NCBI GenBank assembly: GCA_016192525.1
Contig: JACPTZ010000073.1
Coordinates: 1 to 64,000, forward strand
Direction: 5' to 3'
From: Planctomycetota bacterium
GTDB taxonomy: Bacteria; Planctomycetota; MHYJ01; JACPTZ01
DNA: 64,000 nucleotides
A program made the translations under genes and the position numbers. Under the pieces are notes generated by a model. The model saw only the letters and a program-made list of their open reading frames with translations, ran no database searches and was not told the DNA's origin. Below, in pieces: positions 44,252 through 62,372 of this stretch; the stretch's first letter is position 1; each line of letters opens with the position of its first letter.

Positions 44252-44716
44252 TACGAAAGGGTTTGTCCGGCTGAAGCATACTCGTCCATATGCGAACCCG
44301 GAACGGAATGAACCACGAATCTCACGAACTTGTTGCTTTCCTCTCCTCCCTCCGTTTCAGTGGCCTCAGCGGTTTCAGGGGTTCCCTCTTTCTGTCGTTC
44401 TGAGCCGTGCGTCGCTTGGAGGATGGTCCCCGGCATTCGTGAACTTCGCGGTCTCCCTGCCGGATGGACCGGAGAAGTACACTTCACCCGGATGAGCCGG
44501 AGAAAAGACAGTGGCGGCGGCGCCAGGAGTGGGCGAGGAGGCGCTGCGGACTTGGAGCGAGCGTGGGTGAATGCGCCGGGAAACGCAGGCGGAGGCACGC
44601 GGGGGTCGCGGACAGTGTCGGCTCGGGACGGCGGCGGCCCGGACAGGCGCCGGCCGGCTTGCCTCCTCTCTCTGTGTCGTTTCTCATCTTACGTTTTACG
44701 TTTTACGCTTCAGATT
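44252..44716. other. Gene-free low-complexity stretch
   Basis: Bases are short degenerate repeats (CCTCCGTTTCAGTGGCCTCAGCGG, then ACGTTTTACGTTTTACG). Frames open here look like chance. A shorter ACGTAAAACG repeat occurs also near 9780. I see no convincing gene. Confidence 0.5.
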
Positions 44717-44744
44717 GGTACCCCCACGGGGGGTTGAACCTCCC
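44717..44744 (-). other. tRNA/tmRNA 3'-end-like remnant
   Basis: On the minus strand GGAGGTTCAACC and a final GGGGGTACCA resemble a T-arm plus acceptor 3' strand and CCA. No matching 5' acceptor or anticodon arm follows, and the T stem has two mismatches. It coincides with the switch from core to accessory genes, so it may be a leftover attachment site for an integrated element. This is speculative. Confidence 0.25.
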
Positions 44745-45020
44745 TCGATAGTACAGTCCCTGGTCGACAGGTTCCATCTAAAGATAGCGTAGGCGAACGA
44801 CCCGACTGCCGCCGCCCGCGGACGCAGTGGAGCTCCAGTCCCGCTCTGGGAGTGCGCCAGCACGCAAGATTATGTTCCGGAACAGGTTGCACGTGCTTTT
44901 GGTGTGCCTAGACGTTCTGGAGGTCTCGGGCGTATAACCCCTGGAAAGACTTGAGGAGCGACTCCAGAATGCTCGCGCAACCACGCCTCGTGGCGAGGAT
45001 CTTGCGGAGGATCCCCTATC

Positions 45021-46088
45021 GCGGCCGGGATCCCCCCCTCAAAGAACTGGAAGTTCATCTTCGAGACGATGAGCCGTTACGCGATGAGCGGCAAGCCGGT
45101 GGACTTGATCGCCATCTCGCCGCTGTCCGGGGTGGCGAAGGGTGCAGACCAGTTCCCGTTGGTGACACGGTTTGTGGATCTACCCAGGGTAGATTACCTG
45201 AAGGTGCTGGCCTCGACGCACGTCGTGGTGAATGCCTCTCACGAAGAAGGCTTCACGATCGCGGTGATCGAGCAGTTGTACTCGGGCTGTGTTGTCCTGC
45301 TGCCCCGCCGTCCCTGGGTGAAGGCCCTGATCCGGGAATGCTACGAGGACTGCCCGTGGCGGTACTCGACACAGGAAGAGGCGTATGCGAAACTGAAGAT
45401 GAATCGCAGAGACTACGCGGCGGCTCAGCGAGCGATGGCCCCGGTCCGGGCCATGATCCGCCGGGACTACGACTCTCGTAGGGTGGTCGCGGACACGTTC
45501 GGTACGATCGCCCGGGTGGTCGACGAAGGCCGGGCGGGGTTGGGCATGAGTGCGGACGTCCACGATCTGATCCGACAGGCGACGCTGGGTCTGGGGTCGA
45601 TGTTCCGGTTCTCGAAGTTCTGTGAGACCCTCAAAGCCCTGGCTCGTCTGCCGGCGCAGGTCTTCGACCGTGATGTCCCGGTGGCCACGTTCCCAGGGAA
45701 GCTCCAGGTGTACTGGGCGCTGCAGGAGTTGGGCTACGTGGACAGTATGGACTCGCCGGATCCGTTGATGGTGAAGACGGGAACGACAGTGCTTGCGGCA
45801 AGGCCGTGGAAAGGAGGAACGCGCTACAGTGGCAGGGACGTCCCAACAGGGCATCCGGTCACGCGACGGGGGTCTACCCTGGTAGACTGTAACCCGTTAC
45901 TAGCACAGTCTTTACAATTCGCCCGCGACTGGCGCGAGACGAAGAGTTCCGTACGGCCATTGCGGGAAGGATCTCGCCCGTGGGGAAGTAGCAGGATTGA
46001 GGCGCCCCACAGGCGCCAGGCGCCAATCTCGGGCTCGTGGTGGCCAGGCTTGGGAGCCGTTCCGGGTCGTGAGGTCTTCCTCACGTGA
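45021..46088 (+). pseudogene. Truncated glycosyltransferase (GT4-like) remnant
   Basis: The open frame (start ATG 45069, readable back to about 45021 as KNWKFIFETMS) gives the C-terminal half of a GT4-type glycosyltransferase: LASTHVVVNASHEEGFTIAVIEQLYSGCVVLLP, then a helical tail to about LGYVDSMDSPDPLMVK (45774). The N-terminal nucleotide-sugar half is missing and a stop (44952-44954) lies before it. After about 45790 the translation turns compositionally random and runs into the leader of the reverse transcriptase. It appears cut at both ends by the insertion of neighbouring elements. Confidence 0.6.
46068..46085 (+). other. Perfect 7-bp hairpin upstream of the reverse transcriptase
   Basis: CGTGAGG (46068-46074), TCTT loop and CCTCACG (46079-46085) lie 80 bases before the RT start. 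It is one of several inverted repeats in 45830-46165 (for example GTCTACCCTGGTAGAC at about 45869). They may be part of a structured RNA or simply a leader hairpin. Confidence 0.45.
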
Positions 46089-46165
46089 ACTCCCCTGCGA
46101 GACGGCACCTGAACCGTGGTGATGCCATCGCGAGCCCGGCGGTGCGTGGTGGTGGAGGGACGACG

Positions 46166-47635
46166 ATGAGCGAGAATGTCATGGGCATGTGTGAGTATGG
46201 CGAAGAGGAGGTCGTCGAACTGTCACCGCCGGAGTGTCGGCACGGGTTCCTGCAGGCGCATCGGCTGCGTCAAGCCGCGCGCGCGAGGGTCTCCAAGAAG
46301 CAGGAGGGTCTTCGCGGGCAGGTCGAAGAGAATTGGGATCGCGAGTTCGCAGAGCTGTATGACATGGTCTGTGATCAAGACACGCTTTGGGTGGCCTGGT
46401 TCGCCGTGCACAAGAACGATGGGGCCTGTGGCGTCGATGAGGAGACAATCGAGGCGGTGGAGAGGCAAGGCGTCAGCTCCTTCCTGGAGAGCCTCTCGCA
46501 TGATCTGCGGGTCGAATCCTATGTCGCCACACCGGTGCGGAGAGAGTACATCCCGAAGGACTCGGGAGACCTGCGTCCCTTAGGGATCCCGACCGTCCGT
46601 GACCGGGTTGTCCAGACCGCCGTGAATCTCGTGCTTGAGGCGATCTTCGAGGCCGACTTCCTGCCCTGCTCATTCGGTTTTCGCCCCGGGAAGAGCATCT
46701 ACCACGCTGTGGCCCAGATCAGACGCCTGCTTCGAAAGGACCTACCGGTGGTTTTCGAGGCAGATATCACGAAGTTCTTCGACAGAATGGACCAGGGTTT
46801 GCTCTTGGATGCCGTACGGCGGCGCGTGTCTGATGAGAGAATTCTGGCCCTGATCTCGATGTGGCTCAAGATAGGGGCGCTGGATCACGGCATTCTCCAA
46901 CCTTCGACGACAGGGACGCCGCAGGGCGGGGTGATCAGCCCGCTTCTGGCGAACATCTACCTCCACGCGCTTGATTCGGAGATTCGGACTAGGAGCAAGG
47001 GACGATTCTACCTCGTACGGTACGCCGATGACTTCGTGATTCCTTGCCGCGCTGGAGCGAGTGTTGAGGCGGAATGCGTTGTTCGGGAGATCATGTCCGG
47101 ATTGATACTGGAACTTCACCCACGCAAGACCGGCATGCGCGACGTGTCGTCCGGGTTTGATTTCTTGGGTTTCACCTTCCAGGTTCAAAGGGCGGCACAT
47201 GGTCGCAGGGCGGTTCTGATCAGGCCAGCGAAGGAGTCCGTGGACAGGTTCATCTCCGACTTGGCGACCGTCTCCACCAAGTGTCGCAGACCGAAGGGAA
47301 GGCGGTCTCCGCCACCGGCTCCGCTCGATGCCTATGCGGAGAGGCTTCGCAGCTGGGTAGGACACGTAGGGAGCAGGGAAGTCAACGGCGTGAAGATCAA
47401 GGTGGATAGTTACGAGGAACGAAAGAGGGTCGCGGAGGCGGCCATCGCGGCTTTCCCCGCATTCGCTCGGCTGCGTGCTCCGACCTCTCACGAAGCGCCG
47501 AGTCTCGCGCTGATTGAGGAGACAGTCAGGACGATTTGCCTCAAGCTGATTGCTTGTGAAGGCGCTCGCGCAAAAACACCGAGTCGGAGCGTGGGGGCAG
47601 GAACGATTGGATCAGGCGCTGCCTCTGAGGCGTGA
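46166..47635 (+). CDS. Group II-intron-like reverse transcriptase
   Basis: A 489-residue protein. RT motifs are complete: FEADITKFFD (197-206, first Asp), TPQGGVISPLLAN (251-263) and RYADD (285-289), with LRPLGIPTVRDRVVQ before. These place it in the group II-intron or group II-like branch, not diversity-generating retroelements, whose motifs differ at the SQ position. A 75-residue helical N-terminal stretch precedes the RT fold. The C-terminal part (about 350-489) has DAYAERLRSWVGHVG, which is only weakly like maturase X, and there is no HNH endonuclease. I found no domain V downstream. Start ATG 46166 has GGAGG seven bases upstream; an in-frame ATG lies further up. Confidence 0.88.
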   Translation: MSENVMGMCEYGEEEVVELSPPECRHGFLQAHRLRQAARARVSKKQEGLRGQVEENWDREFAELYDMVCDQDTLWVAWFAVHKNDGACGVDEETIEAVERQGVSSFLESLSHDLRVESYVATPVRREYIPKDSGDLRPLGIPTVRDRVVQTAVNLVLEAIFEADFLPCSFGFRPGKSIYHAVAQIRRLLRKDLPVVFEADITKFFDRMDQGLLLDAVRRRVSDERILALISMWLKIGALDHGILQPSTTGTPQGGVISPLLANIYLHALDSEIRTRSKGRFYLVRYADDFVIPCRAGASVEAECVVREIMSGLILELHPRKTGMRDVSSGFDFLGFTFQVQRAAHGRRAVLIRPAKESVDRFISDLATVSTKCRRPKGRRSPPPAPLDAYAERLRSWVGHVGSREVNGVKIKVDSYEERKRVAEAAIAAFPAFARLRAPTSHEAPSLALIEETVRTICLKLIACEGARAKTPSRSVGAGTIGSGAASEA

Positions 47636-47663
47636 CGAAACCAGGGCTGATGAGTGTGGAGCG

Positions 47664-47691
47664 TTGACATCGTGGGGCGCGGCTGTATGAT
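47664..47691 (+). promoter_or_regulatory. Near-consensus sigma-70 promoter
   Basis: TTGACA (47664-47669), a 16-bp spacer and TATGAT (47686-47691). The -35 is perfect and the -10 has 5 of 6. It lies 28 bp after the RT stop and 27 bp before the first small regulator-like gene. Confidence 0.75.
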
Positions 47692-47717
47692 GGCATGAGA
47701 GAATTTGGACTACATGG

Positions 47718-48029
47718 ATGCCCGGAGAAGCGAGCAAGAACGTGAAGCGTGCGGCGAAAACTCCAGAGAAGAGATCAGGCCGAAGGTCCAAGTACTTGAT
47801 GGTCAATGTCACGCTGTCGAACGAACTGGACGAGTTTCTTCAGTCTGTCGGCAACAGGGCGCGGAAGTCCGGAGGGTACAAGTTGCCGAAGACCCTGATT
47901 CTGCGGGGACTTGCTCGCGTGCTTCGTGAACTGGTCGAGGCGGACCGAATCGATCTTGCCGGGTTGAAGACGGAGGAGGAATTCGTGAAGGCCCTTCGCA
48001 CAGGGATGGGACTGGGTGGGAGCAGGTGA
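47718..48029 (+). CDS. Ribbon-helix-helix-like small protein, copy A
   Basis: A 103-residue protein. After a Lys/Arg-rich N-terminus (about 1-24) comes a ribbon-helix-helix-like segment: strand KYLMVNVTL, helix SNELDEFLQSVGNRA, helix LPKTLILRGLARVLREL. The C-terminus is LAGLKTEEEFVKALRTG. It is related to the next gene across this whole core. Possible roles are a DNA-binding regulator or antitoxin. It is the first gene behind the strong promoter and the sharp separation from the RT suggests independent expression. Confidence 0.7.
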   Translation: MPGEASKNVKRAAKTPEKRSGRRSKYLMVNVTLSNELDEFLQSVGNRARKSGGYKLPKTLILRGLARVLRELVEADRIDLAGLKTEEEFVKALRTGMGLGGSR

Positions 48030-48075
48030 TGCTCTCTTTATCACCATTCTGAGTTATAGATATCAATAAGTGCCC

Positions 48076-48357
48076 ATGACGCGACCCAAACTCGCCAAGA
48101 CGCAACGGAAAATGCTCTGCCTGACATTCCCGCCGGAGTTGATCCAGTTCCTGGACAGCTTGGCATGGGATCTGGCCCGGGAGTCGGGATGTGCACACAG
48201 GCTTGATCGGATGACCCTGCTTCGCGGGCTCGTCCGAGCCTTCCGGAGGGGCAAGTTCGACGTCACGGGCATTCGCACAGAAGATGAGTTCGTGAAGAGC
48301 ATCCTGGCGCAGATCCGCGAACGAAAGAGGGGAAAGGTGAAGGTCGGCAGGAAATGA
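48076..48357 (+). CDS. Ribbon-helix-helix-like small protein, copy B
   Basis: A 93-residue paralogue of the preceding gene: MLCLTFPPELIQFLDSLAWDLA, then MTLLRGLVRAFR and VTGIRTEDEFVKSILAQIR align with LMVNVTLSNELDEFL, TLILRGLARVLR and LAGLKTEEEFVKAL. A highly basic tail (RERKRGKVKVGRK) follows. Two diverged tandem copies next to a reverse transcriptase are unusual. The start ATG (48076) lies two codons after an in-frame GTG. Confidence 0.7.
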   Translation: MTRPKLAKTQRKMLCLTFPPELIQFLDSLAWDLARESGCAHRLDRMTLLRGLVRAFRRGKFDVTGIRTEDEFVKSILAQIRERKRGKVKVGRK

Positions 48358-48680
48358 CGTGCTGTTCGTTCGGAGTGCCCGCGCCCTCTTCACGAACCGG
48401 GGATCGTCTGAAGAGGCGGGGAGGGCGGCCTACGGGGAGGCGAATTGGTGAGAGTCCTCGATGCCTCCTCGCTGGCTTTCACCGGAACTCTCGGCGACAA
48501 CGATGGCTTCGTCCGAAGGGCCGTGAAGAAGACGGGGCTCGCCATGGTGGCGCCAGGCGCTGTCTCATGAGTGCTGGTGGGAGGCCGTCGGATTCCCTCG
48601 ATCGAATTCCGGAGGCGCGACATTACGTTGTCGGCCCCGGCCCAAATCTCTACGGAATTTCATCGTCGAAAGGGAGGACC
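48358..48680. other. Gap without supported gene
   Basis: Between the small regulators and the TPR gene. A reading frame runs through it into the TPR gene but is not supported by family start or Shine-Dalgarno sequence. No repeat or tRNA is seen. Confidence 0.5.
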
Positions 48681-49391
48681 ATGAGCCGCGACGACACGTT
48701 CGACGACCTGATTGATGAAGCCTGCCAGGCCATCGACACGAACGACCTGCTTCACGCCATTCGCACGCTCACGACGGTGATCGAGGCCCTTCCCCAAGGG
48801 GTCGACGCGCTCACTCTGCGTGGGATTGTTCAGCTTCGCCTGGACAACCTGCACGCAGCAATGGGCGATCTCTCGCGGGCGATCGAGGCGTCACCCGATG
48901 CCCCCCTGGCCTTCTACTGGAGGGGACTTGTTCACTTCAGGCTGGGCAGGCCGAGGGAAGCCTGTGAGGATCTCACCGCCGTGCTCCAGAAGGGTCTGCA
49001 GATTGGACCGGTCTTCTGGGCGAGGGCATTGACCCTGATGGAGATGCGGGACTGGCATGGTGCTCTGGATGATCTCATCGCGGCTCAGACCCATGATCCG
49101 AATCGGAAGGAAGTAGGCGAGATGATCGCTGTCGTTCGGCAAAACATGGCCGGTAGTCGTGCAGACGTGCCCGAATCCATCACAAAGGAGGACGAGATGG
49201 GCAAGAACTGGTGGGGCCCGTTCCCCGGATCGCCTGGGAGCCCTGCAGAGGCCATGGAGTCCGAATCTCCCGTCGAACTCCGCATCGATCCGAATCGATG
49301 GCAGGAAGGCAGGAGAGTCAGAATCGTCATAGACGCCATGGTGGAGCGCTCGGATGGAGCAGAGGGGCGCGTCGAGGGCGCTGCCTCCTGA
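48681..49391 (+). CDS. TPR protein
   Basis: A 236-residue protein with about four TPR-type helix pairs (DLLHAIRTLTTVIEALPQG, then LTLRGIVQLRLDNLHAAMGD, APLAFYWRGLVHFRLGRP, then a further pair). The C-terminal 70 residues are acidic and unstructured-looking, ending in AEGRVEGAAS. It likely works as a scaffold. Start ATG follows GGGAGG. The stop TGA overlaps the next ATG (TGATG), opening a four-gene coupled series with the nuclease and SprT genes. Confidence 0.8.
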   Translation: MSRDDTFDDLIDEACQAIDTNDLLHAIRTLTTVIEALPQGVDALTLRGIVQLRLDNLHAAMGDLSRAIEASPDAPLAFYWRGLVHFRLGRPREACEDLTAVLQKGLQIGPVFWARALTLMEMRDWHGALDDLIAAQTHDPNRKEVGEMIAVVRQNMAGSRADVPESITKEDEMGKNWWGPFPGSPGSPAEAMESESPVELRIDPNRWQEGRRVRIVIDAMVERSDGAEGRVEGAAS

Positions 49392-49765
49392 TGGCGAAAC
49401 CGTCCACCCGATCTTCGCCGCGGCAGGCGGAGTCGCCGCGTCCTGGAGGAGGCAAGAACATGGTTGGCGATGGAAAGTCCTCCAACGGAGAGACTCTTCT
49501 CTCCCGCCTGGACGTCTCACCCGAACTCATCCGTTCGCTCAAACTCGGCAAGACGTACGAGGTCCGGCTCAGATCAGCCTTGTTGGACCGGAACCAGCGC
49601 GCCTATCTGGCCGACGGGTTGGACCCCGTGCTGGCGTCTCCGGAGTCTGGCGAGTTGGAACTTCTGGGCGCTGCCGCGATCATCAAGCAGACGCTCGTTG
49701 AAATTGCCAGATGGAAGGCCACCCATCCGGACAAGCCGTTCCCGGAGAAGAGAGGACAAGAGTGA
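49391..49765 (+). CDS. Small protein of unknown function
   Basis: A 124-residue protein: a basic, Ser/Pro-rich N-terminal third, then a folded-looking part (ETLLSRLDVSPELIRSLKLG, then ELLGAAAIIKQTLVEIARWK). Not recognised. Start overlaps the TPR stop and its own stop overlaps the nuclease start (GTGA). Coupling suggests equal amounts and a possible complex with the nuclease. Confidence 0.6.
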   Translation: MAKPSTRSSPRQAESPRPGGGKNMVGDGKSSNGETLLSRLDVSPELIRSLKLGKTYEVRLRSALLDRNQRAYLADGLDPVLASPESGELELLGAAAIIKQTLVEIARWKATHPDKPFPEKRGQE

Positions 49766-51258
49766 AGACCGCACGGATTTCCCTTTCCGATCTGCTCGAC
49801 CGCACGGCGGTGGCAGGCAGACCATCCGGCGACCGGACGTTGAAGGCATCCTCGGTCTATTTCCTGGTCACGGACCCGTTCTGGACATGGTGCGATCTCC
49901 ACGCTCCGCGGGCGGAAGCCGTCGTCGAGGAGAGCGACTACGACCGAATTCGGATGCAGCGTGGCGTCGAATTCGAGACCCAGTGGGTGCACGATCACTT
50001 TCCCGACGCCCTACGAATAGAACCGGAATTCGGAGATGAGGCGCTGGTGAACACGATCAGGGCCATGCGGGACGGGGTCCGGGCGATCTACCAGCCGCAT
50101 CTCTCGCTGCGAGGAGGGAGAATCTGTGGGAGGGGAGATCTCCTCATTCGGGTGGATGGCAAGGAGTCCGACCTGGGCGACTATTCCTATCGCGTTCTTG
50201 AGGTCAAGCGGAGTCGGGAGGTGAAGCGATATCACGCCCTTCAAGCAGCCTTCTACCATCACATCGTCTCCGCCATTCAGGGCCGGACGCTGACGGACTT
50301 CACGGTCGTCCTCGCCGCCGGGGAGATCACGCTGGAGTACGCGCAGTACGAAGGCGCGATGCGGGAGGCCATCGATCTGTGGCGGAGGTTGCTCGCCAAT
50401 CAGATCCAGCCGGATCCGCCCGGCGCGGACAAGACTCAGTCTCCCTGGCGCCTGTACGCGAATCGCGTGCTCCGTGACAGACACGACCTGACTCTGCTCC
50501 CCGGCGTCGGCCCGAAGACTCGCGAGAGAATCCGAAAGGACCTCGGGGCCCAGAGTGTTACCGACCTCTTTGAGTGCTCTCCCGGAGAACTGATCGGCGC
50601 GTTGGGACCGGCGCTCGGGACGAGCATCTACTACGGCGCGATCGCCTATCGCTTGCAGAAACCAGTCCCTGTCCCCGGCAATCGGGTGATCATCCCACGC
50701 GGCGCGAGGGCGACGTATGCGCTGGACTTCGAGACGAGCGACTCTCTCGGTCCTCAGGTCTCCCAACCGCCCCACTGCTATCTTGCCGGACTTTGGGACT
50801 TCCAGACGGATCGGTTCGTCCGTTTCTTCGCTCGCGGTCCTTCCGACGAGTCGAGGATGTTCGAGGAGATGCTGGACTACGTTGGAGACCTGGACGGGGT
50901 CTGTGTGCACACCTGGACCGCCTTCGAGAACGGCGTTCTCGGCGAGGCCACCGGACGCCATCCCCACCTCGCCGACCGCCTCAAGGCATTCACGGCCTGC
51001 TGCGTGGATCTCAAGGATGCCCTCAAGTCGCAGGTCCACCTTCCTGTCCCGACGTGGAGCATCAAGCAGGTGGGGCCCGCGCTCGGGTTTCATTGGAGAC
51101 ACTCCGGTTTCGGCGCCTTCGATTCCATGACGGCCTACTGGCGTTTTCTGGAGACGGGAGACGAGTCCCTGATGCAGGAGCCGTTCGATTACCACGAGGA
51201 TGACGTCGCGGCCATGGCGCACATCGCGAAGGCGCTCGACGGGTTGGGTGATTCATGA
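49762..51258 (+). CDS. TM0106-type RecB-like nuclease with RNase-H-like domain
   Basis: A 498-residue protein. N-terminal PD-(D/E)XK domain: GRGDLLIRVDG, then YRVLEVKRSREVKRYHALQAAFY (EVK with E147). A helix-hairpin-helix region (LTLLPGVGPKTRERIRKDLG, about 248) follows, then an RNase-H/exonuclease-like domain (YALDFETSDSL, about 322, with later VCVHTWTAFENGVL). This is the architecture of TM0106/YprB-like putative nucleases often linked with CRISPR or plasmid-defence loci. Start GTG overlaps the previous stop; the stop overlaps the SprT start (ATGA). Confidence 0.88.
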   Translation: MKTARISLSDLLDRTAVAGRPSGDRTLKASSVYFLVTDPFWTWCDLHAPRAEAVVEESDYDRIRMQRGVEFETQWVHDHFPDALRIEPEFGDEALVNTIRAMRDGVRAIYQPHLSLRGGRICGRGDLLIRVDGKESDLGDYSYRVLEVKRSREVKRYHALQAAFYHHIVSAIQGRTLTDFTVVLAAGEITLEYAQYEGAMREAIDLWRRLLANQIQPDPPGADKTQSPWRLYANRVLRDRHDLTLLPGVGPKTRERIRKDLGAQSVTDLFECSPGELIGALGPALGTSIYYGAIAYRLQKPVPVPGNRVIIPRGARATYALDFETSDSLGPQVSQPPHCYLAGLWDFQTDRFVRFFARGPSDESRMFEEMLDYVGDLDGVCVHTWTAFENGVLGEATGRHPHLADRLKAFTACCVDLKDALKSQVHLPVPTWSIKQVGPALGFHWRHSGFGAFDSMTAYWRFLETGDESLMQEPFDYHEDDVAAMAHIAKALDGLGDS

Positions 51259-51662
51259 ACTCGAAGGCGAGCATGGCGCGGCCTATCCCGAGACCCGCAG
51301 ACAGCGAGTGTGAAGAGTTGTTCGCTCGGTTCAACTCGGCGTTCTTCGATGGCCGGATTCCGGCGTATCACATCCGAGTTCAAGCCGACCCCGTCCTCTC
51401 TCCGGGCGGGCGCGGGTACCACGATCGCAAGGGACGAACGATCACGCTCCTGCTGCTCCCTCGCCCGGAGCTCGACGGCACACTCGTACACGAGATGGCT
51501 CACGCTTCAACAAACGACTATCACGGACCGAGGTGGGTGAACGAGATGCGGAGGCTCTTCCGGCGCGGGGCGCCCCTCTCGGAGTTGGATCTTCGTCGAC
51601 TCTGTCTGCGTCCCAACGACGGGGTCCAGTGTCCGCCCCTGGCCGACTCTTGGGGATGGTGA
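51255..51662 (+). CDS. SprT-like zinc metalloprotease
   Basis: A 135-residue protein with HEMAH (H79, E80, H83) and third ligand H90 in NDYHGPRW, preceded by TITLLLLPRPELDG, the SprT fold. SprT-like proteases (SPRTN-type) digest DNA-crosslinked proteins in eukaryotes; bacterial short versions are unstudied. There is no zinc ribbon or DNA-binding tail as in full-length SprT. It is the last gene of the coupled series; a nuclease and a DNA-protein-crosslink-type protease together suggest action on protein-bound DNA. Confidence 0.85.
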   Translation: MNSKASMARPIPRPADSECEELFARFNSAFFDGRIPAYHIRVQADPVLSPGGRGYHDRKGRTITLLLLPRPELDGTLVHEMAHASTNDYHGPRWVNEMRRLFRRGAPLSELDLRRLCLRPNDGVQCPPLADSWGW

Positions 51663-51755
51663 TTCCCACGCAGGCTGACCCGGGTGCGAAGCGGCACCTG
51701 TTGGAGCACCTCCGACTGCCTGCTGGCGGGAATCGTGAATTGGAGGGACAACTCG

Positions 51756-52937
51756 ATGATCAAATTCCTCTGCCCGGGATGCGGCAAGAAGCTCGGGGCC
51801 CGCGACGAGATTGCCGGCAAGAAGGTGAAGTGTCCGGGATGCGGAAAGCCCGTGCCGGTACCGGCCACGTCTGCTCTTCCCCCACCCCCGCAGCCCGGTG
51901 TGACGCGCAAGACCGACTACAATGTCACCGCCATTCCGGAAGCGGTCCCGGCCGATCTGCATGCGGGTGTGGCGCCCGCGGGCCGAGGGGCCCCTGCGCC
52001 TTCCAACGTCTCGAACAGGCAGAGGGCCACCGCGTGGTATTTCGCTCCCGTCGTCGTGATCCTCTCACTCATTTGCTGCTTTCCGCTCGGGCTCATCCTG
52101 CTATGGGTCGGCAGACTGTGGACACAGACGATCCGGATAGTCGTGACGGGCACGCTCGCGTTTCTCGTGATTGCCGTCTCAGTCTCACAGCACTCTCGAC
52201 CGACTGGAGTCACAGACAGTGGTTCCGCCGTGAACGGGGCATCTGCGAGCGGAACTTCGTCCTCCTCCGGCGGGGCCTCTCCGGCGGTCGAAACCGGGGG
52301 CGGGGCGACGCCAGTTCACGATTGGATCAACGCGCGGCCTCCAGAGGAATGGGAAGCCATGACCGCAGGAAAGACCTATGAGGTGTTCGGGCATGTGGGT
52401 GACTCGCACGACGGCTGGAACCTGTTCACGCGGAAGGACTCCCGGTTCCGCTTTGTGTTCTCCGACTCTGAGGCGGCAAGCGCTCTCTTGGCCGGGGAGC
52501 TGTCCAAGCGGTCCTTCAAACGGGCCTATGTCCTCATTTCCGCCCGCTATGCGGGTACCAAAGACATTCGCACGACCAACTCGCTCCTCTTCTCCCCTGA
52601 CGACCCGAGGGCGAAGGAGACGGAAAAGGTGCACGCATTCGAGAGTGTCCAATTCAAGGGGTTGGCGTTCGACTACGAGGAGATGTTCCGCGGAAAGCCC
52701 GAGCGCGGGACAGTGTACCTCGTGCAAGGGAAATTCGAGGGTTCGGTGGATGGGTACGAACTGATTCATACGTTGCCCGAGTGGAAGATAGCCTTCCGCC
52801 TCTCGACACCCGTAGAGCAGGCGTCCGGAGGCACCGTCACCATCATCGGAGAGTTCGACGGATTCAAGGACTTCAAGACCGTGTTGGGAGCGCCTCTCCG
52901 AGTTCCCTTCTTGAACAACGCGGAACTGCTGGAGTGA
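51756..52937 (+). CDS. Zinc-ribbon membrane protein
   Basis: A 393-residue protein: N-terminal zinc ribbon MIKFLCPGCGKKLG, then CPGCGKPVPVP, Pro-rich linker, membrane spans at about 98-118 and 128-146, then a soluble, Ser/Gly-rich region and a beta-type C-terminal domain (YEVFGHVGDSHDGWNLF, then TVTIIGEFDGFKDFK). The ribbon-linker-membrane layout matches the gene at 2937 (which has only one span), but the soluble domain is different. Start at 51756 has GGAGG upstream. Its presence inside the defence-like region is unexplained. Confidence 0.75.
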   Translation: MIKFLCPGCGKKLGARDEIAGKKVKCPGCGKPVPVPATSALPPPPQPGVTRKTDYNVTAIPEAVPADLHAGVAPAGRGAPAPSNVSNRQRATAWYFAPVVVILSLICCFPLGLILLWVGRLWTQTIRIVVTGTLAFLVIAVSVSQHSRPTGVTDSGSAVNGASASGTSSSSGGASPAVETGGGATPVHDWINARPPEEWEAMTAGKTYEVFGHVGDSHDGWNLFTRKDSRFRFVFSDSEAASALLAGELSKRSFKRAYVLISARYAGTKDIRTTNSLLFSPDDPRAKETEKVHAFESVQFKGLAFDYEEMFRGKPERGTVYLVQGKFEGSVDGYELIHTLPEWKIAFRLSTPVEQASGGTVTIIGEFDGFKDFKTVLGAPLRVPFLNNAELLE

Positions 52938-52996
52938 ACGGAGGGCGGCCAGGACCGCGTCTCCGCTCTTTCCCAAAGCGAGCAACGGAGGTCAGC

Positions 52997-55348
52997 ATGG
53001 CGACATCAACCTGGACGGTACAGCAGATCGTCGAGAAGGAATACGGCCGACTTGGCGTCCCCCACTTCCAGCGCGGCCTCGTGTGGAACAAGGACTCGGT
53101 CGCCAGGCTTCTGGAGTCGCTCTACTACGACACGCCTTGCGGGACCCTGATCCTCTGGAAGCCGTTGAGGATCGAAGATGAGGGGATTCCCCTCCCTGGG
53201 TCCCGGAAGATCGAGTACCTGATCATCGACGGACAGCAGCGCATCCGGAGTCTGCACGACGCGATTTCCGGTCTGTCCACCGAGACTCCAGACGCCGACC
53301 CCGGCGAGGGTTCGGGGGGAGAGGCGGACGCGGAGGTCGGTCGAGTGTGGTGTTTGAACCTGACGCGGATTCCAGAGTTGTCTGACCTCCTGAAGGACGA
53401 TCTCCTCGACTTCCCCTTCTTCATGAAGGTCCGCGATCCCCGTACAGAGGTGCGCGATCCGCGCCGAGCGGGACCCGCCCGCTTTCGGTTCAACCTCGTT
53501 CCGCTCTCAGAGTTCTTCGGTAGCGACGGCCACCGCGATCTCGGCCCGCTCATCAAGCCCAGCGGTCCCGTGGATGTTGTCCTCCGGAGGATCCGCGAAA
53601 TCGGCTTGGAGCGGCGGGTGCAGGCTATCAGGGAGCGTACGTTTCCCATCCTCATCAAGAATGAGGAACGCGGCGGGGAGAACGGACTGGTCGATCTCGT
53701 GCAGATGTACAACCGCATCAATAGCAGCGGTGTCCGCGTGGAGGCCGAAGAGCGGGCGTATGCGACTCTGGTCGCCATCCGCCGAGACGTTGTCGATGGA
53801 TGGATGCGGGGCCTCTTTCGGAAGATCCACGACGAGGGCGTGCCCAGGGAGGGGACGCGGTTGGAACGCGACGACGTGCTCCGACGGACCAAGGAGAAGA
53901 ACTTCGGGTTCAAGTTCTTCGTTCGCACGTTAGTTCAGACGTGCAACTACTACCTGCAGCAGGGTCTCGGCACCAGCGCTTTGTCGTTCGATGCCCTGAA
54001 CAAGCCGTCCACGCTTCGAAATCTCAGAGGCAAGGAGAATGCCGAGCGCTTCGGCCATATCCTGAAGGACTCGGAACGGCTGATCACCTACATCAGCGAG
54101 GTGGTGCGGGATGACCTCAAGTGCGACAGTTTCGCCTTTCTACCGGACACGTCCTCGTTTGCGCCGACGTTCCAGCTCTTGCTGAAGTACCCGCTGTTGG
54201 CCGAGCGCGGGGAGTATCGCCCGCTCGTCAGGCTCTTCGTCCTGAAGGCACTCCTGGCGAACCTGAACCAGCGCGACCTGCTCAAGCTGGTCGACAAGGT
54301 GCGCCGGACCAACGAGGTGAATGAGTGTGCCGGGATCATCAAGGACGTGGCGATACCTCCCCTCTCGAAGGTACTGGCGGGCGCAAACTCTCTCCAGAAC
54401 CGATACGTGCTTCTCCTCTACTGGCTCCTGCGGCAGCGCGGGGCCCGGGACTTCGACTATCGAAACCTGCCGAAGGGGACGCCTCCCGGCCTCAAGCGCC
54501 ACACAGAGGGCACCCGCGGGGTCCCGGTCGAGGCAGGGTTTTCGCCGGAGAAGCAACATGTTGTCCCGTATCATCACCTCGAAGAGATCTACGGGTTGAA
54601 AGACGGATCGCGCCAGAGCACGCATCCCGCCAACAATATCGGGAACCTCACCTACATCTCGCACGATGAGAACGAGTGCTTCGAGGGTGGATTGGGCCAT
54701 CGTCCGATCCGCTGGGAGCATGATGACCTCTCGAATCTCCGCAGTCACTTCCTGGTCGGAGATCGTGAGGAGATGCGCCAGGCAAGGACGTGGGAGCTGT
54801 ACGGCGCGGTTCTGGACCCGCAGGGACGGGATCGAAAGGCAAAGTTCGAGGAGTTCTGCCGACTTCGCGCCGGGTTCATCGCCAATCGTTTCGGGGTATG
54901 GTTGCGGGAGCTGGAGGCTGCCGTTCCCGCACTCGGTAGGATGGAGCCCTCCCCACCCCCGTTCGCCCCGACGATTCAGGTTCAGGATCGGGTTCGCGCC
55001 TTCGATCTGGACAATGACTTGGAGGACGAGATCCTGGCTCTCCTCCAGATGGGGCCTAGGATCAGCAAGCGCAAGGACTTCCCTCTCTGCTTGGGGTTCT
55101 TCCAGCCCATGAAGACTGGAAAGCGGCAGGTCGTGCAGATTCGACTGCGTCCGGAGGACGCGATCATCAAGTTCAACGACCTCAGTGCGGAGGTGGCGCA
55201 GACCGCCCTCAAGGCGGTCGGACCAGATCGAACGCGTGACCAGGACAAGGTCTTGCTGCCGGTGAGGGGCCCCGAGAGTCGCCTGACCCTCGCCGTGCTG
55301 AAGGCGATCAGCCTGTATCTTGGCCCAAGGAGGTCGGGTGTGACGTAG
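52997..55348 (+). CDS. DUF262-HNH protein (GmrSD-like)
   Basis: A 783-residue protein. N-terminal DUF262: VPHFQRGLVWNKDSVARLLES, then the ParB-like DGQQR (78-82). A long helical middle follows and an HNH-like domain has KQHVVPYHHL (about 518-528) and NNIGNLTYIS (about 545-555), similar to DUF1524 in GmrD. GmrSD enzymes cut modified (glucosylated) phage DNA. A C-terminal tail (about 650-783) is extra and of unknown fold. Start ATG 52997 follows GGAGGTCAGC. Confidence 0.85.
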   Translation: MATSTWTVQQIVEKEYGRLGVPHFQRGLVWNKDSVARLLESLYYDTPCGTLILWKPLRIEDEGIPLPGSRKIEYLIIDGQQRIRSLHDAISGLSTETPDADPGEGSGGEADAEVGRVWCLNLTRIPELSDLLKDDLLDFPFFMKVRDPRTEVRDPRRAGPARFRFNLVPLSEFFGSDGHRDLGPLIKPSGPVDVVLRRIREIGLERRVQAIRERTFPILIKNEERGGENGLVDLVQMYNRINSSGVRVEAEERAYATLVAIRRDVVDGWMRGLFRKIHDEGVPREGTRLERDDVLRRTKEKNFGFKFFVRTLVQTCNYYLQQGLGTSALSFDALNKPSTLRNLRGKENAERFGHILKDSERLITYISEVVRDDLKCDSFAFLPDTSSFAPTFQLLLKYPLLAERGEYRPLVRLFVLKALLANLNQRDLLKLVDKVRRTNEVNECAGIIKDVAIPPLSKVLAGANSLQNRYVLLLYWLLRQRGARDFDYRNLPKGTPPGLKRHTEGTRGVPVEAGFSPEKQHVVPYHHLEEIYGLKDGSRQSTHPANNIGNLTYISHDENECFEGGLGHRPIRWEHDDLSNLRSHFLVGDREEMRQARTWELYGAVLDPQGRDRKAKFEEFCRLRAGFIANRFGVWLRELEAAVPALGRMEPSPPPFAPTIQVQDRVRAFDLDNDLEDEILALLQMGPRISKRKDFPLCLGFFQPMKTGKRQVVQIRLRPEDAIIKFNDLSAEVAQTALKAVGPDRTRDQDKVLLPVRGPESRLTLAVLKAISLYLGPRRSGVT

Positions 55349-55497
55349 GCCGACACGGGAGGCCGCGCTTCCGAAGAGACGTTTCGAGCCGGCAGCCGGA
55401 CCCGAATGGGCCGGCGAGTACCCGTACGCGTGTGGCGAGGTGGGGCGTCACAGACGAGGTTCGCTGGTCCGGGTGCTCCGCCCGCCGGAGGTCCTCC

Positions 55498-56469
55498 GTG
55501 GAAGATCGGTCGATCGCAAAGTCACCTGATCGGACCTTGAGGCGAGGCAATCACGCCGACGCCCTGCAGGCCGCGGAACTCTTCGCGGACTGGTTCGCGG
55601 CCCTGTCCGAGGCCACGAGGCGCAACTACGCCCAGGACTTGGGCGCCTTCGCGGCCCACCTCGGCGTCCATGATCGGCGGCAGGCCGCGGTGGCCCTCTG
55701 CACCGCCACTCCACTCGACGCGCGAAGCCTCGTGCTCCGGTTCAAGACGGCGAGGCGCGACGCCGGCGAGGCGCCCGGCACCATCAACCGGCGGCTCTCG
55801 GCACTCCGATCGCTGTACCGGCACGTCACGGGCGTCCCGCTCGTCATCCCATCGATCAAGGCGGTCCCACGGAGGCGTGTGCATCGTGGCCCCGGCTCCC
55901 TCGTCGCATCGCTCTTGGCCACTGCTGCGACCGCACATGGGATCAAGGCACTCCGTGACGTCGCGCTGGTGGCAACGCTCCACGACAGCGGGCTCCGTCG
56001 CGCCGAAGCAGCGTCTCTGCGCGTGCGCGACCTCGATCTTGAAGCACGAGTCGCCCACGTCATCGCGAAGGGGCGCATGGGCGAGCGCGAGGCCGTGGAC
56101 CTCTCCGCGCCAGCGGTCGACGCCCTCAAGGCCTACCTGACCGCTCGTGGCGCATTGCTCCCCGACTCCCCCGTCTTCTCCTCGTGTGACAGGGCTCGAA
56201 AGGGCAACGGGGCGCTGACGGCGGACGGGATTCACTCGATTCTCTCAGCGCTCTCCGAGAGGGCCGGGTTCACCCAGCGCATCGCTCCGCACGATCTGCG
56301 GCGCTGCGGGGCACGCTCCCTGGCAAAGGCGGGCGCCGACGCCGAGACGCTTCGCCGATGGGGTCGGTGGGCCGACTACCGCACGCCAGCCCGCTACGTC
56401 GGCGAGGTGGCCGAGAAGGGGCGCGAGGCCGTCGATCTCCTGGCGCGGCTGCGGCAAGCGGCAGGGTAG
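55498..56469 (+). CDS. Tyrosine recombinase (XerC/D-like integrase)
   Basis: A 323-residue enzyme with a SAM-like N-terminal domain (ATRRNYAQDLGAFAAHLG) and a catalytic domain: R in DSGLRRAEA, K in AKGRMGEREAV, HDLRR (H-x-x-R) in APHDLRRCGARS, and the nucleophile Tyr in RTPARYVGEVAE. The His/Trp position reads RWGRWADY, so His is Trp. Start GTG 55498 is preceded by GGAGG; a longer in-frame start exists upstream. It could have moved this island or cassette. Confidence 0.9.
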   Translation: MEDRSIAKSPDRTLRRGNHADALQAAELFADWFAALSEATRRNYAQDLGAFAAHLGVHDRRQAAVALCTATPLDARSLVLRFKTARRDAGEAPGTINRRLSALRSLYRHVTGVPLVIPSIKAVPRRRVHRGPGSLVASLLATAATAHGIKALRDVALVATLHDSGLRRAEAASLRVRDLDLEARVAHVIAKGRMGEREAVDLSAPAVDALKAYLTARGALLPDSPVFSSCDRARKGNGALTADGIHSILSALSERAGFTQRIAPHDLRRCGARSLAKAGADAETLRRWGRWADYRTPARYVGEVAEKGREAVDLLARLRQAAG

Positions 56470-56478
56470 GGATTGCTC

Positions 56479-56712
56479 GTGGGCTTCGTGGTCTACATCA
56501 ACTGGACGGTCCGACGCGGAAGAGTCCATCGTGATGACTGCACGCACTACCGAAGTCGGAAGACCGAGGAGCAGGTCTCGGGCAGGAGCGACGAGTGGAT
56601 GGATAGCCCACCCTTCGACTCGCGAGACGAGGCCTTCGCCGCCCTGGAGCAGGCGATGAGGGTTCAGAACCTCGGGCACGACCACGGTCCTTGCGGGAAC
56701 TGCAGACCCTGA
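56479..56712 (+). CDS. Small Cys/His protein
   Basis: A 77-residue protein starting at GTG (INWTVRRGRVHRDDCTHY, then CGNCRP at the end). The pattern HxxDC near the N-terminus and CxxC at the end suggests a small metal-binding fold. Not recognised; next to the recombinase, which it may accompany. A strong palindrome follows four bases after its stop. Confidence 0.6.
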   Translation: MGFVVYINWTVRRGRVHRDDCTHYRSRKTEEQVSGRSDEWMDSPPFDSRDEAFAALEQAMRVQNLGHDHGPCGNCRP

Positions 56713-56715
56713 CCT

Positions 56716-56745
56716 TGTTCCCGAATACCGCCATTATCGGGAACA
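56716..56745. promoter_or_regulatory. Palindrome TGTTCCCGAATA/TATCGGGAACA
   Basis: An 11- to 12-bp inverted repeat with one mismatch around an eight-base centre (56716-56727 and 56735-56745). Possible uses are an operator for a helix-turn-helix regulator, a recombinase core site, or an RNA hairpin. It lies near the integrase and before the cyclase cassette. The rest of 56746-57002 has no supported gene; it carries a C-rich run and a CTGATCGACCC motif repeated at 60416. Confidence 0.5.
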
Positions 56746-57002
56746 TAATCACCCCGTTTCTGAGCCTCCCCCCCCCCTCCGCTCACTCTGGCTGATCGAC
56801 CCTCAAACTCCGGTCTGGCGCGCCTTGCGCCAAGGCACGGCCCTGGCGCGATACCTGCCGCAGGGCTACACCCCGGCGGAGACGCGGCACGCGACCCCCT
56901 CGGGAACGCTCACTCGAATGCGCGGAGACAAATGTTGGCACGAAGACCTCTGCCAGTCTATCCTGAGCATGTTCGGTGTGAGGATAGGGGCGGAGACTCA
57001 AT

Positions 57003-57182
57003 ATGGCTCTGCAGCAAGTCACGCTGGACGTTCCGCGGCAGGTCGAGGCGAAGTCCGGGCGTCCCATCCTCGTTGAACCCGAACCATCCCTCCCGCTCCT
57101 GGCGACCGTCAGGATCGCACGCGGTGATTCGCCGACCCACGTCGTGCGGCACAATCCCTCGGCGGAGCGTGCCCCCGGTTGA
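57003..57182 (+). CDS. Small duplicated gene, left copy
   Basis: A 59-residue protein: MALQQVTLDVPRQVEAKSG, then ILVEPEPSLPL and THVVRHNPSAERAPG. Start ATG has GGAG seven bases upstream. A second copy with matching residues (TLEALRQVEEKSG, ILVKPEPSLPL, AHVVRYNPAD) lies after the cyclase gene (60534-60938). Conservation in two places argues for a real gene. Function unknown. Confidence 0.6.
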   Translation: MALQQVTLDVPRQVEAKSGRPILVEPEPSLPLLATVRIARGDSPTHVVRHNPSAERAPG

Positions 57183-57192
57183 AGGATCTTCC

Positions 57193-58047
57193 ATGCCCCC
57201 TGCTCCATTGCCATCGGAACGTCGCACCGTCACGGTTCTCTTCTCCGACCTCCAGGGATTCACCTCACTTTCCGAAGGGAGTGATCCCGAGGAAGTTCGC
57301 GAGTTGATCGAAGCCCTCTTCACTCGCCTGCGCGCTGCCATCGAGGCCCAAGGGGGCACGGTCGACAAGTTCATCGGAGACGCGGTAATGGCGGTTTTCG
57401 GCGGTGAACAGGCGCACGAGGACGACGCGCTCAGGGCCGTTCGAGCCGGCTTGGTAATGCAATCGGAAATCGCTTCCTTCAACCAGGAGAAGAGCCTGTC
57501 GCTTGAACTCCGGATCGGGATCAACTCGGGTGAAGTGGTCTACGGCGCTATCGCGGGGGAGAAGGCGACCGTGATGGGTGATGCCGTCAACGTGGCGCAA
57601 AGACTCGAAGCGGCATGCCGGCCTGGTGGGATCCTGATCTCCGCCGCTGTCGAGCGCGCGACGAGAGGTTCCGTTCGAACCACGAGGTTGGACGAGATCA
57701 CGTTGAAGGGCCGGCAAGAGCGTGTCCAGCCCTACGAAGCGACGGGGCTGCTGGTGACCGATCGTCGCTACCGCAGGGCGGGAGCCGAAGCGCGACCGAT
57801 GATCGGGCGAGAACGGGAACTCTCGCGGCTTCGGGCGCTCTTTGAGGCGCGGAAGCCGGCGTTTGTCCTGATCGAAGGGGAGGCAGGGATCGGGAAGAGC
57901 CGCCTGATCTGGGAGTTCCATCAGTATCTGACGGGTGTCGAAGACGGTGTCTCGTGGAATCTAGGGCATTGCCGGGAGATGGGACCGCTGCCGATGGACC
58001 CTTGGGCGGAGATGCTGCGGAAGCGGGCGCGCAGGACCTGGCCGTGA
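57193..58047 (+). CDS. Class III nucleotide cyclase plus AAA N-terminal part
   Basis: The N-terminal product of a gene split by a frameshift (284 residues here). Cyclase homology domain (about 12-190): metal Asp D19 in LFSDLQGFTSL and D63 in KFIGDAVMAVFG, followed by GDAVNVAQRLEA. This makes cAMP or cGMP. After it IGRERELSRLRAL and Walker A EGEAGIGKSRL begin an AAA-type domain, which stops at MDPWAEMLRKRARRTWP. The rest of the ATPase is in the next frame. Start ATG follows AAGGATCTTCC. Confidence 0.85.
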   Translation: MPPAPLPSERRTVTVLFSDLQGFTSLSEGSDPEEVRELIEALFTRLRAAIEAQGGTVDKFIGDAVMAVFGGEQAHEDDALRAVRAGLVMQSEIASFNQEKSLSLELRIGINSGEVVYGAIAGEKATVMGDAVNVAQRLEAACRPGGILISAAVERATRGSVRTTRLDEITLKGRQERVQPYEATGLLVTDRRYRRAGAEARPMIGRERELSRLRALFEARKPAFVLIEGEAGIGKSRLIWEFHQYLTGVEDGVSWNLGHCREMGPLPMDPWAEMLRKRARRTWP

Positions 58048-60359
58048 ATCCGTCCATCGACGGAACAGAAAACGCGCAGGTCGTAGAACGGGAGAACCTG
58101 GCGCACCTGATGACGCTGTCGGTCGGCCTCGATGTGCCTGATGCCCGGGTGAAATCCATCCCCCCGGAGCGGCTGGGGATGGAGACTCGCCATGCCTGGG
58201 AGCGATGGCTGCGGGCTCTGACGGAGAAGCAACCCTTGGTGCTGGTGGTGGAAGACCTGCATTGGGCGCATCCGGGGCAGATTGAGTTTCTCGAACACCT
58301 GGCTTCGAAGATCGAGGGATGGGAAGCGGGCAAGGGCCGGGTGCTGTTCTTGGCCGTGACTCGGCCGGAGGGAAAGACGCTGACGGGGTTCGAGCGAATG
58401 CGGCTGGAGCCGCTGGGCTCCGAGGACTGCGGTCGGATAGCGGAGTTGGCGTTGCGGATGCCAGCGGCCGGGTCGTTGCTGAAGTTCCTCACAGACGAGT
58501 CTGGAGGGAACCCGTACTACGTAGAGGAACTGTCTCGATACCTGGTTGAGAAGAACCTGGTGGAGGTGCGCCCTTCCGAAGGCGGGGGAGTAGTCGTCAA
58601 GGCCCACCTGAAGCCCACGTCGGAAGTGCTGAAGGTTCCGGATACTCTGAACGGCCTCCTCGTGGGCCGCATTGATGGACTCGGGCGCGAGGAAAAGGAA
58701 GCGGTGAAGGGGGCGAGCGTGGTGGGCTCGATGTTCTGGCTGGGCGTGCTGGAGGCAGCGTTGAATCGGTCCGCGGATCGGGATGTGAAGGAACTCGAAG
58801 GGCGGGAGATGGTCAGGAAGCGAGTCGAGTCCGAACTGCCCGGCGAGGTGGAGTATGCGTTCCGGCACGCGCTTCTTCGCGATGCGGCATACTCGCTACT
58901 GACAAAGAGGGACCGGATGCGACTGCATGGGACGCTCGGGAAGGTCCTGGAAGCCAAGGGGACGACACGGGCGAAGGCGCTTGCGGCGGCGCACTGGAAG
59001 GAGGCGGGCGAGGCGGCGAGAGCGCACGGGCTCTACCGCGAAGCGGCGGGGGAGGCGCTGGAGCGGTCTGCGTTCGAGGAGGCGTTGGAGTACGCGACGC
59101 AAGGAGGGTCGGCGCTCCTGCGGGCGATTGCGCTGGCTCGCTTGGCGCGAAATGGCGAGGCCTTGGAAGCGGTCGAGGAGGTGCGCGGAGCGGCTGAGGC
59201 GAGCCCGGAGGAAAAGGGCCGGGCGCTGCTGGTGGCAGCCGGGGTGCATGAGAAGCGGGGAGAGATTGAACTGAGCCTCGGGGCGGCGGATGAGGTCTTG
59301 GGGACGGAGGGGATGCTGCCGCTTAGGGCGGAGGGGCTGCGCGCGAGGGGGGTGGCATTGTACTGCCTCGGAAGGTATAACGAGGCGCTGGTGGCGGTTA
59401 CGGAAGCGTTGCAGACTTTGCGTGAAGCCGCGGAAGCGACGTGTCCCACGCGAGCCGTTCGAAATAGGCTCGCGTTGGGGCTCAACAGCATGGGGAATGT
59501 GCACTACGTTCGAGGTGAATATGGGGAGGCGAGGAGGAGATATGAAGAGTCCTTGGCGATCCGACGGGAGCTCGGGGATCGGCACGGGATCGCAGGGAGC
59601 CTGAACAGCATGGGGAATGTGCACTACGCTCGGGGTGAGTATGGGGAGGCAAGAAGCAGGTATGAAGAGTCTCTGGCGATCCAGCGCGAGATCGGCGATC
59701 GGCACGGGATCGCGGGAAGCCTGAACAACATCGGGGCTGTGCATCAAGCCCGAGGCGAGCACGCGGAGGCGATGAAGGCAAACAAGGAGTCTCTGGCGAT
59801 CAATCGGGACATCGGGCATCGATCCGGGATCGCGACGAATCTCGATCAAATCGGGGCTGTGCATCAATCTCTGGGCGAGCACACGGCAGCGATGAGGACG
59901 CAGGAGGAGTCTTTGGCGATCAAACGCGAGATCGGAGATCGATCCGGGATCGCGGGGAGCCTGGGCAACATCGGGATCTTGCGTTTCGATCGGGGTGAGT
60001 ACGCGGAGGCGATGAAGGCGCACGAGGAGTCGCTGGCGTTGGTGCGGGAGATCGGGGATCGGCACGGAATTTCGGTGATCCTGAACAACATCGGGGCAGT
60101 GCATCAGGCCCGAGGCGAGTACGCGGGGGCGATGAAGGCACACAAGGAGTCGCTGATGGTGGCACGGGAGATTGGGGCGCGCGCCATGGAGGCGCGGGCA
60201 CTCATGGGCCTTGGCGAGGCGGAGGCCGCGCTTGGGGAGCCGGCAGAGGGGCTCGCGCACATGCAGCAGGGCGCGGCGCTATTCGGGTGTATGGGCATGA
60301 ACAAGGAAGCCGATCAGGCACGAGCGAAGATCGCCGATCTGGCACGCGTTCAGAAGTAG
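58044..60359 (+). CDS. AAA remainder plus TPR array, second part of split cyclase gene
   Basis: Continues the same protein in another frame: Walker B region PLVLVVEDLHWAHP, then LLVGRIDGLGREE, and a C-terminal TPR array of TPR_12-type repeats (about eight 40-residue copies, such as NSMGNVHYVRGEYGEARRRYEESLAI) to the stop. A GTG at 58044 overlaps the TGA of the first part (GTGA), so reading might continue by coupling rather than by a genuine frameshift. Splitting an AAA domain between two proteins is unusual; a sequence error or a mutation is more likely. Together they would form a CHD-AAA-TPR protein of about 1055 residues. Confidence 0.8.
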   Translation: MNPSIDGTENAQVVERENLAHLMTLSVGLDVPDARVKSIPPERLGMETRHAWERWLRALTEKQPLVLVVEDLHWAHPGQIEFLEHLASKIEGWEAGKGRVLFLAVTRPEGKTLTGFERMRLEPLGSEDCGRIAELALRMPAAGSLLKFLTDESGGNPYYVEELSRYLVEKNLVEVRPSEGGGVVVKAHLKPTSEVLKVPDTLNGLLVGRIDGLGREEKEAVKGASVVGSMFWLGVLEAALNRSADRDVKELEGREMVRKRVESELPGEVEYAFRHALLRDAAYSLLTKRDRMRLHGTLGKVLEAKGTTRAKALAAAHWKEAGEAARAHGLYREAAGEALERSAFEEALEYATQGGSALLRAIALARLARNGEALEAVEEVRGAAEASPEEKGRALLVAAGVHEKRGEIELSLGAADEVLGTEGMLPLRAEGLRARGVALYCLGRYNEALVAVTEALQTLREAAEATCPTRAVRNRLALGLNSMGNVHYVRGEYGEARRRYEESLAIRRELGDRHGIAGSLNSMGNVHYARGEYGEARSRYEESLAIQREIGDRHGIAGSLNNIGAVHQARGEHAEAMKANKESLAINRDIGHRSGIATNLDQIGAVHQSLGEHTAAMRTQEESLAIKREIGDRSGIAGSLGNIGILRFDRGEYAEAMKAHEESLALVREIGDRHGISVILNNIGAVHQARGEYAGAMKAHKESLMVAREIGARAMEARALMGLGEAEAALGEPAEGLAHMQQGAALFGCMGMNKEADQARAKIADLARVQK

Positions 60360-60533
60360 CATCTCCCTGATCGGGGGCACGGTCACCCCCCCCCTCCCTC
60401 GCCCACGAACACACCTGATCGACCCGCCACTCCCCACCCCTGGCGCCGAGCACGCAGAGGAAATGCCGGCGGGAAGACCCTCGCCAATCTGTTATGGTCG
60501 TGTCCGCGACACAGTTGAAAGCGAAGACTCGGA

Positions 60534-62300: not shown

Positions 62301-62372
62301 TCGCCTCTCCGACTCCTGTCCGTCAGTCTTGCCCAGCTTCGCCATGTACACCGAGCAGTGAGGTCATCTGCG

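What the first reader, a model, noticed from the sequence alone, without database searches (positions are those of the whole stretch)
46166..48357. Group II-like reverse transcriptase followed by two tandem ribbon-helix-helix-like paralogues
RT with no endonuclease, no clear maturase domain and no domain V found, so not an obvious mobile intron. It is followed by a strong promoter and two diverged copies of a small DNA-binding-type protein. This could be a group II-like defence RT or a new retroelement with its own regulators.
Basis: partly seen in the sequence, partly recalled or inferred. Interest (0 to 1): 0.62.

Follow-up and report, generated by a model that had tools for sequence, protein, structure and literature searches.

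The report
Stranded group II intron reverse transcriptase
A bacterial reverse transcriptase gene that descends from a self-splicing mobile intron has lost the intron and the splicing part of the protein but kept its copying core, and it sits in a defence-gene island beside an unrelated pair of small, probably DNA-binding genes.

Summary
The RT is real (46166-47635, 489 aa, YADD). It has no endonuclease, no detectable maturase domain and no group II intron RNA. A near-consensus promoter (47664-47691) precedes two 38%-identical small proteins. The RT lies inside the group II intron clade: its closest relatives (46-51% identity) are ordinary introns with domains D1-D4 and V. Its matches to defence-RT models are no better than those of introns. 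A custom domain V model scores 54-70 bits in held-out relatives and at most 9.3 bits near this gene. The RT core keeps all 51 positions conserved in at least 85% of 104 relatives. The maturase region has lost its GW..Y motif and has diverged more, relative to the core, than in any relative. This fits a free-standing, probably domesticated RT better than a decaying relic. It lies in a low-GC3 island beside a BREX system, so a defence role is possible but untested. The small-protein pair is a separate module: it has its own promoter, and the same ordered pair occurs in another genome without an RT within about 10 kb. Verdict: new member of a known kind (free-standing group II-like RT), not a new RT-plus-regulator retroelement.

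The parts
46166..47635 (+). Free-standing group II-derived reverse transcriptase, 489 aa, YADD active site at residues 286-289
46346..47185 (+). RT fingers/palm core (aa 61-340); all 51 positions conserved in >=85% of relatives are kept
47186..47440 (+). Degenerate thumb/maturase (X) region; GW..Y motif lost (G396S, Y400H); no GIIM match
47441..47632 (+). C-terminal tail of the RT frame without coding-phase G+C and without recognised homologue
46154..46159 (+). Shine-Dalgarno-like GGAGGG in front of ATG 46166
   Evidence: read from sequence
47664..47691 (+). Sigma-70-like promoter TTGACA-16-TATGAT, in front of the small-protein pair (not of the RT)
47718..48029 (+). Small RHH-like protein 1, 103 aa
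48070..48357 (+). Small RHH-like protein 2, 95 aa, paralogue of protein 1

Best explanation
The gene was once the protein-coding part of a mobile group II intron. The ribozyme was lost and the maturase end of the protein decayed, while the polymerase core stayed under strong purifying selection. Shown: group II ancestry, absence of detectable intron RNA, selective loss of the maturase region, intact catalytic core. Inferred: it is now a free-standing host or island enzyme that copies an RNA or DNA template, working like other domesticated group II RTs (G2L4 in microhomology end joining; RTs of CRISPR adaptation). Its place in a defence island makes a role in repair or anti-phage DNA synthesis the most likely use. 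The adjacent small-protein pair is an independently transcribed, separately inherited module.
For: Nearest relatives at 46-51% identity are complete group II introns. Core-only tree puts the RT in a 44-row group II clade, support 100/96, terminal branch 1.06. Domain V model: 54-70 bits in held-out relatives, at most 9.3 bits near the gene and 12.9 bits, E 0.39, elsewhere in the window. Core keeps 51 of 51 conserved positions, maturase motif lost, unique among 105. Maturase identity given core identity is the lowest of 105 sequences: 16% against 29 +/- 6% at 45-50% core identity. GIIM 43-53 bits in intron controls, none here. Low-GC3 island with BrxL and other defence-type genes.
Against: No orthologue was found, so selection after the loss of the intron cannot be measured directly. 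The last ~65 codons look non-coding. No promoter or partner RNA for the RT was identified. The long branch may largely predate the loss of the intron. Defence or repair function is context only.
Confidence: 0.53

Rival explanations
1. Recently dead relic: a group II intron whose ribozyme and 3' end were cut away by deletion or rearrangement, leaving an open RT frame that has not yet decayed and has no function.
For: Non-coding-like C-terminal tail; truncated glycosyltransferase-like ORF next door; no orthologue and no RT promoter found. Intron fragments are common in bacterial genomes (established knowledge).
Against: Full retention of conserved core positions on a long branch leaves little room for a neutral phase. 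The maturase region is alignable but strongly diverged, which points to a long period of unequal selection rather than a recent cut.
Confidence: 0.34
2. RT and small-protein pair form one functional unit: a retroelement or defence system with its own regulators.
For: Same strand, 82 nt apart, similar GC3.
Against: Separate promoter for the pair; the same ordered pair in G065 with no RT within about 10 kb; no pair at any of the sampled RT loci.
Confidence: 0.06
3. Functional mobile group II intron with an RNA too divergent to be recognised.
For: The RT core is of intron type and intact.
Against: Domain V, the most conserved part, is found in nearly all of about 104 relatives with the same model and not here; Rfam negative; maturase motif lost; flanks fold no better than shuffled sequence.
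Confidence: 0.03
4. Known DRT/UG, retron, DGR or CRISPR-associated RT system.
For: Many PADLOC RT models match, and the gene lies in a defence island.
Against: Ordinary introns score the same or higher on those models; no curated DRT or retron cut-off is reached; no multi-copy repeat array or template/variable repeat pair in 42-54 kb; no structured ncRNA beside the gene.
Confidence: 0.04

Closest known systems
ORF-bearing mobile group II introns of the Rfam D1-D4-4/-6 type (nearest: L102-L105, same phylum)
   Same: RT core 46-51% identical, YADD, same clade
   Different: No intron RNA, maturase region degenerate, no GIIM match, non-coding-like C-terminal tail
Domesticated group II-like RT G2L4 (PMC12337344)
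   Same: Free-standing group II-derived RT without intron RNA; fast-evolving; full-length structural match
   Different: YADD instead of YIDD; matches G2L4 structures worse than GsI-IIC (61 against 163 bits by sequence; rank 18 by fold)
G2L5 and other group II-like RTs lacking GIIM, e.g. the Planctomycete sequences (PMC4244168, PMC8934634)
   Same: RTs of group II type without intron RNA; at least one reported to lack GIIM
CopG-type ribbon-helix-helix regulators
   Same: Strand-helix-helix sequence pattern; one orthologue matches RHH_1 weakly
   Different: Below the Pfam cut-off; conserved tandem paralogous pair with a third helix; not coupled to the RT

Membership tests
Mobile group II intron | Group II-type RT core with catalytic YADD | tested here: met
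   TIGR04416 323 bits; 51/51 conserved positions; clade support 100/96
Mobile group II intron | Ribozyme with domain V | tested here: not met
   Rfam negative; custom model at most 9.3 bits near the gene against 54-70 in held-out controls
Mobile group II intron | Maturase (X/GIIM) domain | tested here: not met
   No GIIM against 43-53 bits in controls; GW..Y motif lost
Group II-like RT, broad sense (group II-type RT without intron RNA) | Group II-type RT and no recognisable intron RNA | tested here: met
Group II-like RT, broad sense (group II-type RT without intron RNA) | Kinship with the published G2L1-G2L5 groups | not testable with these tools
   Reference sequences not held; only G2L4 could be compared, through PDB
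G2L4 | YIDD motif and closest similarity to G2L4 | tested here: not met
   YADD at 286-289; 61 bits to G2L4 against 163 to GsI-IIC
DRT/UG defence RTs | Curated family score reached or clearly above intron background | tested here: not met
   Drt3a 62 bits against cut-off 200; UG17 134 bits here against 131-142 in introns
Retron | Retron RT score and structured msr-msd RNA next to the RT | tested here: not met
   retron St85 52 bits against cut-off 235; flank folding z -1.33 and -0.77
Diversity-generating retroelement or CRISPR-associated RT | Template/variable repeat pair, or CRISPR repeats, near the RT | tested here: not met
   No such repeats in 42-54 kb
Ribbon-helix-helix (CopG) proteins | RHH profile match above cut-off | tested here: inconclusive
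   15.5 bits for the G065 orthologue of protein 2 (cut-off 20.5), none for the window proteins; model and Foldseek uninformative

The most novel reading that the evidence does not exclude
An independently domesticated group II RT lineage, distinct from G2L4 and the DRTs, acting in anti-phage defence or break repair inside an island that also holds BREX.
Probability: 0.2. Interest if true: 0.65.

Novelty: new member of a known kind. Interest (0 to 1): 0.34.

Why it matters
Group II RTs have been recruited repeatedly, for repair (G2L4) and for CRISPR adaptation. A case caught with a complete polymerase core, a decayed maturase domain and no ribozyme shows how such a recruitment can look. If active, it would be a candidate for a new host function of a mobile-intron enzyme. 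As a single unreplicated case from an incomplete genome (82% complete, 227 contigs), it is a lead rather than a discovery.

Tried and rejected
Hidden intron RNA: Rfam scans, a custom domain V model and nucleotide profiles of intron flanks found nothing; the nucleotide profiles had no held-out control, so they are weak evidence. A frameshifted maturase domain in another frame: none. Structured ncRNA beside the RT: no significant folding. DRT/UG membership by profile: rejected with intron controls. RT-pair linkage: the pair was sought in about 590 genome draws of the phylum (overlapping sets), in plasmids and in viral contigs, and was found as a pair only in G065, without an RT. A tRNA integration site at the left island edge: not confirmed by ARAGORN or Rfam. 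PDB profile search and Foldseek for the small proteins: uninformative. Literature searches for a BREX link or for orphan group II RTs gave nothing directly relevant.

Full report
WHAT IS THERE. The window carries an open frame for a reverse transcriptase, best read from ATG 46166 (GGAGGG at 46154-46159) to the stop at 47635, 489 aa. It matches RVT_1 and, above its curated cut-off, the group II intron RT/maturase model TIGR04416, but only over positions 2-300 of 353. No maturase (GIIM) or endonuclease domain is found. After 82 nt come two small genes, 47718-48029 and 48070-48357, whose products are 38% identical. A TTGACA-16-TATGAT promoter at 47664-47691 is the only such site in 5.2 kb.

ANCESTRY. 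The nearest relatives in the genome collection and in 392 genomes of the phylum are group II intron RTs, the best at 42-51% identity. In a tree of 105 RTs built on the core alone, the window RT lies inside a 44-row group II clade with support 100/96 and has the longest terminal branch, 1.06 changes per site. A tree on the full proteins agrees, with weaker support and a branch of 1.6. By predicted structure the best PDB match is the GsI-IIC group II RT. Its matches to PADLOC DRT/UG models look impressive alone (UG17 134 bits), but RTs from complete introns score 131-142 bits on the same model, so they carry no information.

NO INTRON. Rfam finds no group II RNA at gathering scores in the whole window, nor at E<=5 around the gene. 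A covariance model of domain V and its surroundings, built from 16 relatives, scores 54-70 bits in relatives held out of the model. It finds domain V in nearly all of about 104 relatives; at least two of the misses (L043, L082) lie near a contig end. Near the window RT the best score is 9.3 bits with all filters off; elsewhere in the window the best is 12.9 bits, E 0.39. The flanks fold no better than shuffled sequence.

WHAT WAS KEPT AND WHAT WAS LOST. Of 51 core positions conserved in at least 85% of relatives, the window RT violates none. In the maturase region it violates both near-invariant positions, G396S and Y400H of the GW..Y motif, which no other sequence does. Pairwise, maturase identity given core identity is the lowest among all 105: at 45-50% core identity it is 16%, against 29 +/- 6% for other pairs. 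Intron controls L102, L104 and L107 have GIIM at 43-53 bits; the window RT has none. The last ~65 codons lack coding-phase G+C, and no maturase homologue appears in another frame. So the polymerase was preserved while the splicing function was lost. A rough estimate (inference, from the branch length and the 51 kept positions, taking the branch-average rate as the neutral rate) lets only about 5% of the branch be neutral. This favours domestication over a recent relic, but without orthologues it is not proof.

SETTING. Codon GC3 drops from about 0.81-0.92 in the genes at 30-44 kb to 0.68-0.82 between about 45 and 62 kb. This stretch holds a truncated glycosyltransferase-like ORF, the RT, the small-protein pair, a TPR protein, a TM0106-type RecB-like nuclease, an SprT-like protein, a GmrSD_N protein, a phage-type integrase and a Pycsar-cyclase-like protein with a TPR neighbour. 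BrxL follows at 62373-63926. Beyond the window lie large ORFs that look like further BREX genes and a large serine recombinase; these were recognised by eye and not scanned. A defence or repair role for the RT is plausible from context only.

THE SMALL-PROTEIN PAIR. Another genome of the phylum, G065, carries the same ordered pair, with a gap of about 40 nt as in the window. First matches first and second matches second (scores 119 and 99, against 67-77 crosswise). No RT was seen within about 10 kb there, and no sampled RT locus carries the pair. The pair is therefore an old duplicated module that happens to lie next to the RT. It is probably a DNA-binding pair, judged by a weak RHH_1 match and by RHH-like sequence in two more distant homologues, in G185 and G096.

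COMPARISON AND VERDICT. If it works, it works like a free-standing domesticated group II RT. It is not a mobile intron (two defining features tested and not met), not G2L4 (YADD, not YIDD) and not a recognised DRT. It meets the broad published notion of group II-like RTs without intron RNA (PMC4244168); the Planctomycete G2L5 sequences, one of which is reported to lack GIIM (PMC8934634), could not be compared. New member of a known kind, interest 0.34.

Noticed in passing
window 44700-62350 and G000:C108 beyond 64000 (L131): Low-GC3 island with integrase, defence-type genes and BrxL; beyond the window, large ORFs that look like the rest of a BREX system and a large serine recombinase.
   Followed up: partly
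window 56932-60359: Class III-type nucleotide cyclase-like protein (PADLOC Pycsar cyclase model, 91 bits) followed by a large TPR protein in an overlapping frame.
   Followed up: partly
window 45069-45790: Glycosyltransferase-like ORF that matches only the C-terminal half of the fold and loses coding phase after about residue 240: probably truncated.
   Followed up: partly
window 44715-44740: Stretch that reads like a tRNA 3' end on the minus strand at the left edge of the island; not confirmed by ARAGORN or Rfam.
   Followed up: partly
window 48054-48069: AT-rich imperfect palindrome TTATAGATATCAATAA directly before small protein 2; a possible operator, but 53 comparable palindromes occur in the window.
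   Followed up: partly
L003 (G000:C71) and L002 (G000:C139): Two other RT matches in the same genome: one retron-like in sequence, one group II-like fragment at a contig end.
   Followed up: no
L127 (G109:C55) and L128 (G037:C6): Two long-branch group II RTs of the same phylum with no, or only a 15-bit, domain V match; possibly further orphan RTs, though both keep maturase-like sequence.
   Followed up: partly
L095:9579-10238 (G065): Orthologous tandem pair of small RHH-like proteins in a stretch with AbiE-like, resolvase-like and nuclease-like ORFs (recognised by eye).
   Followed up: partly
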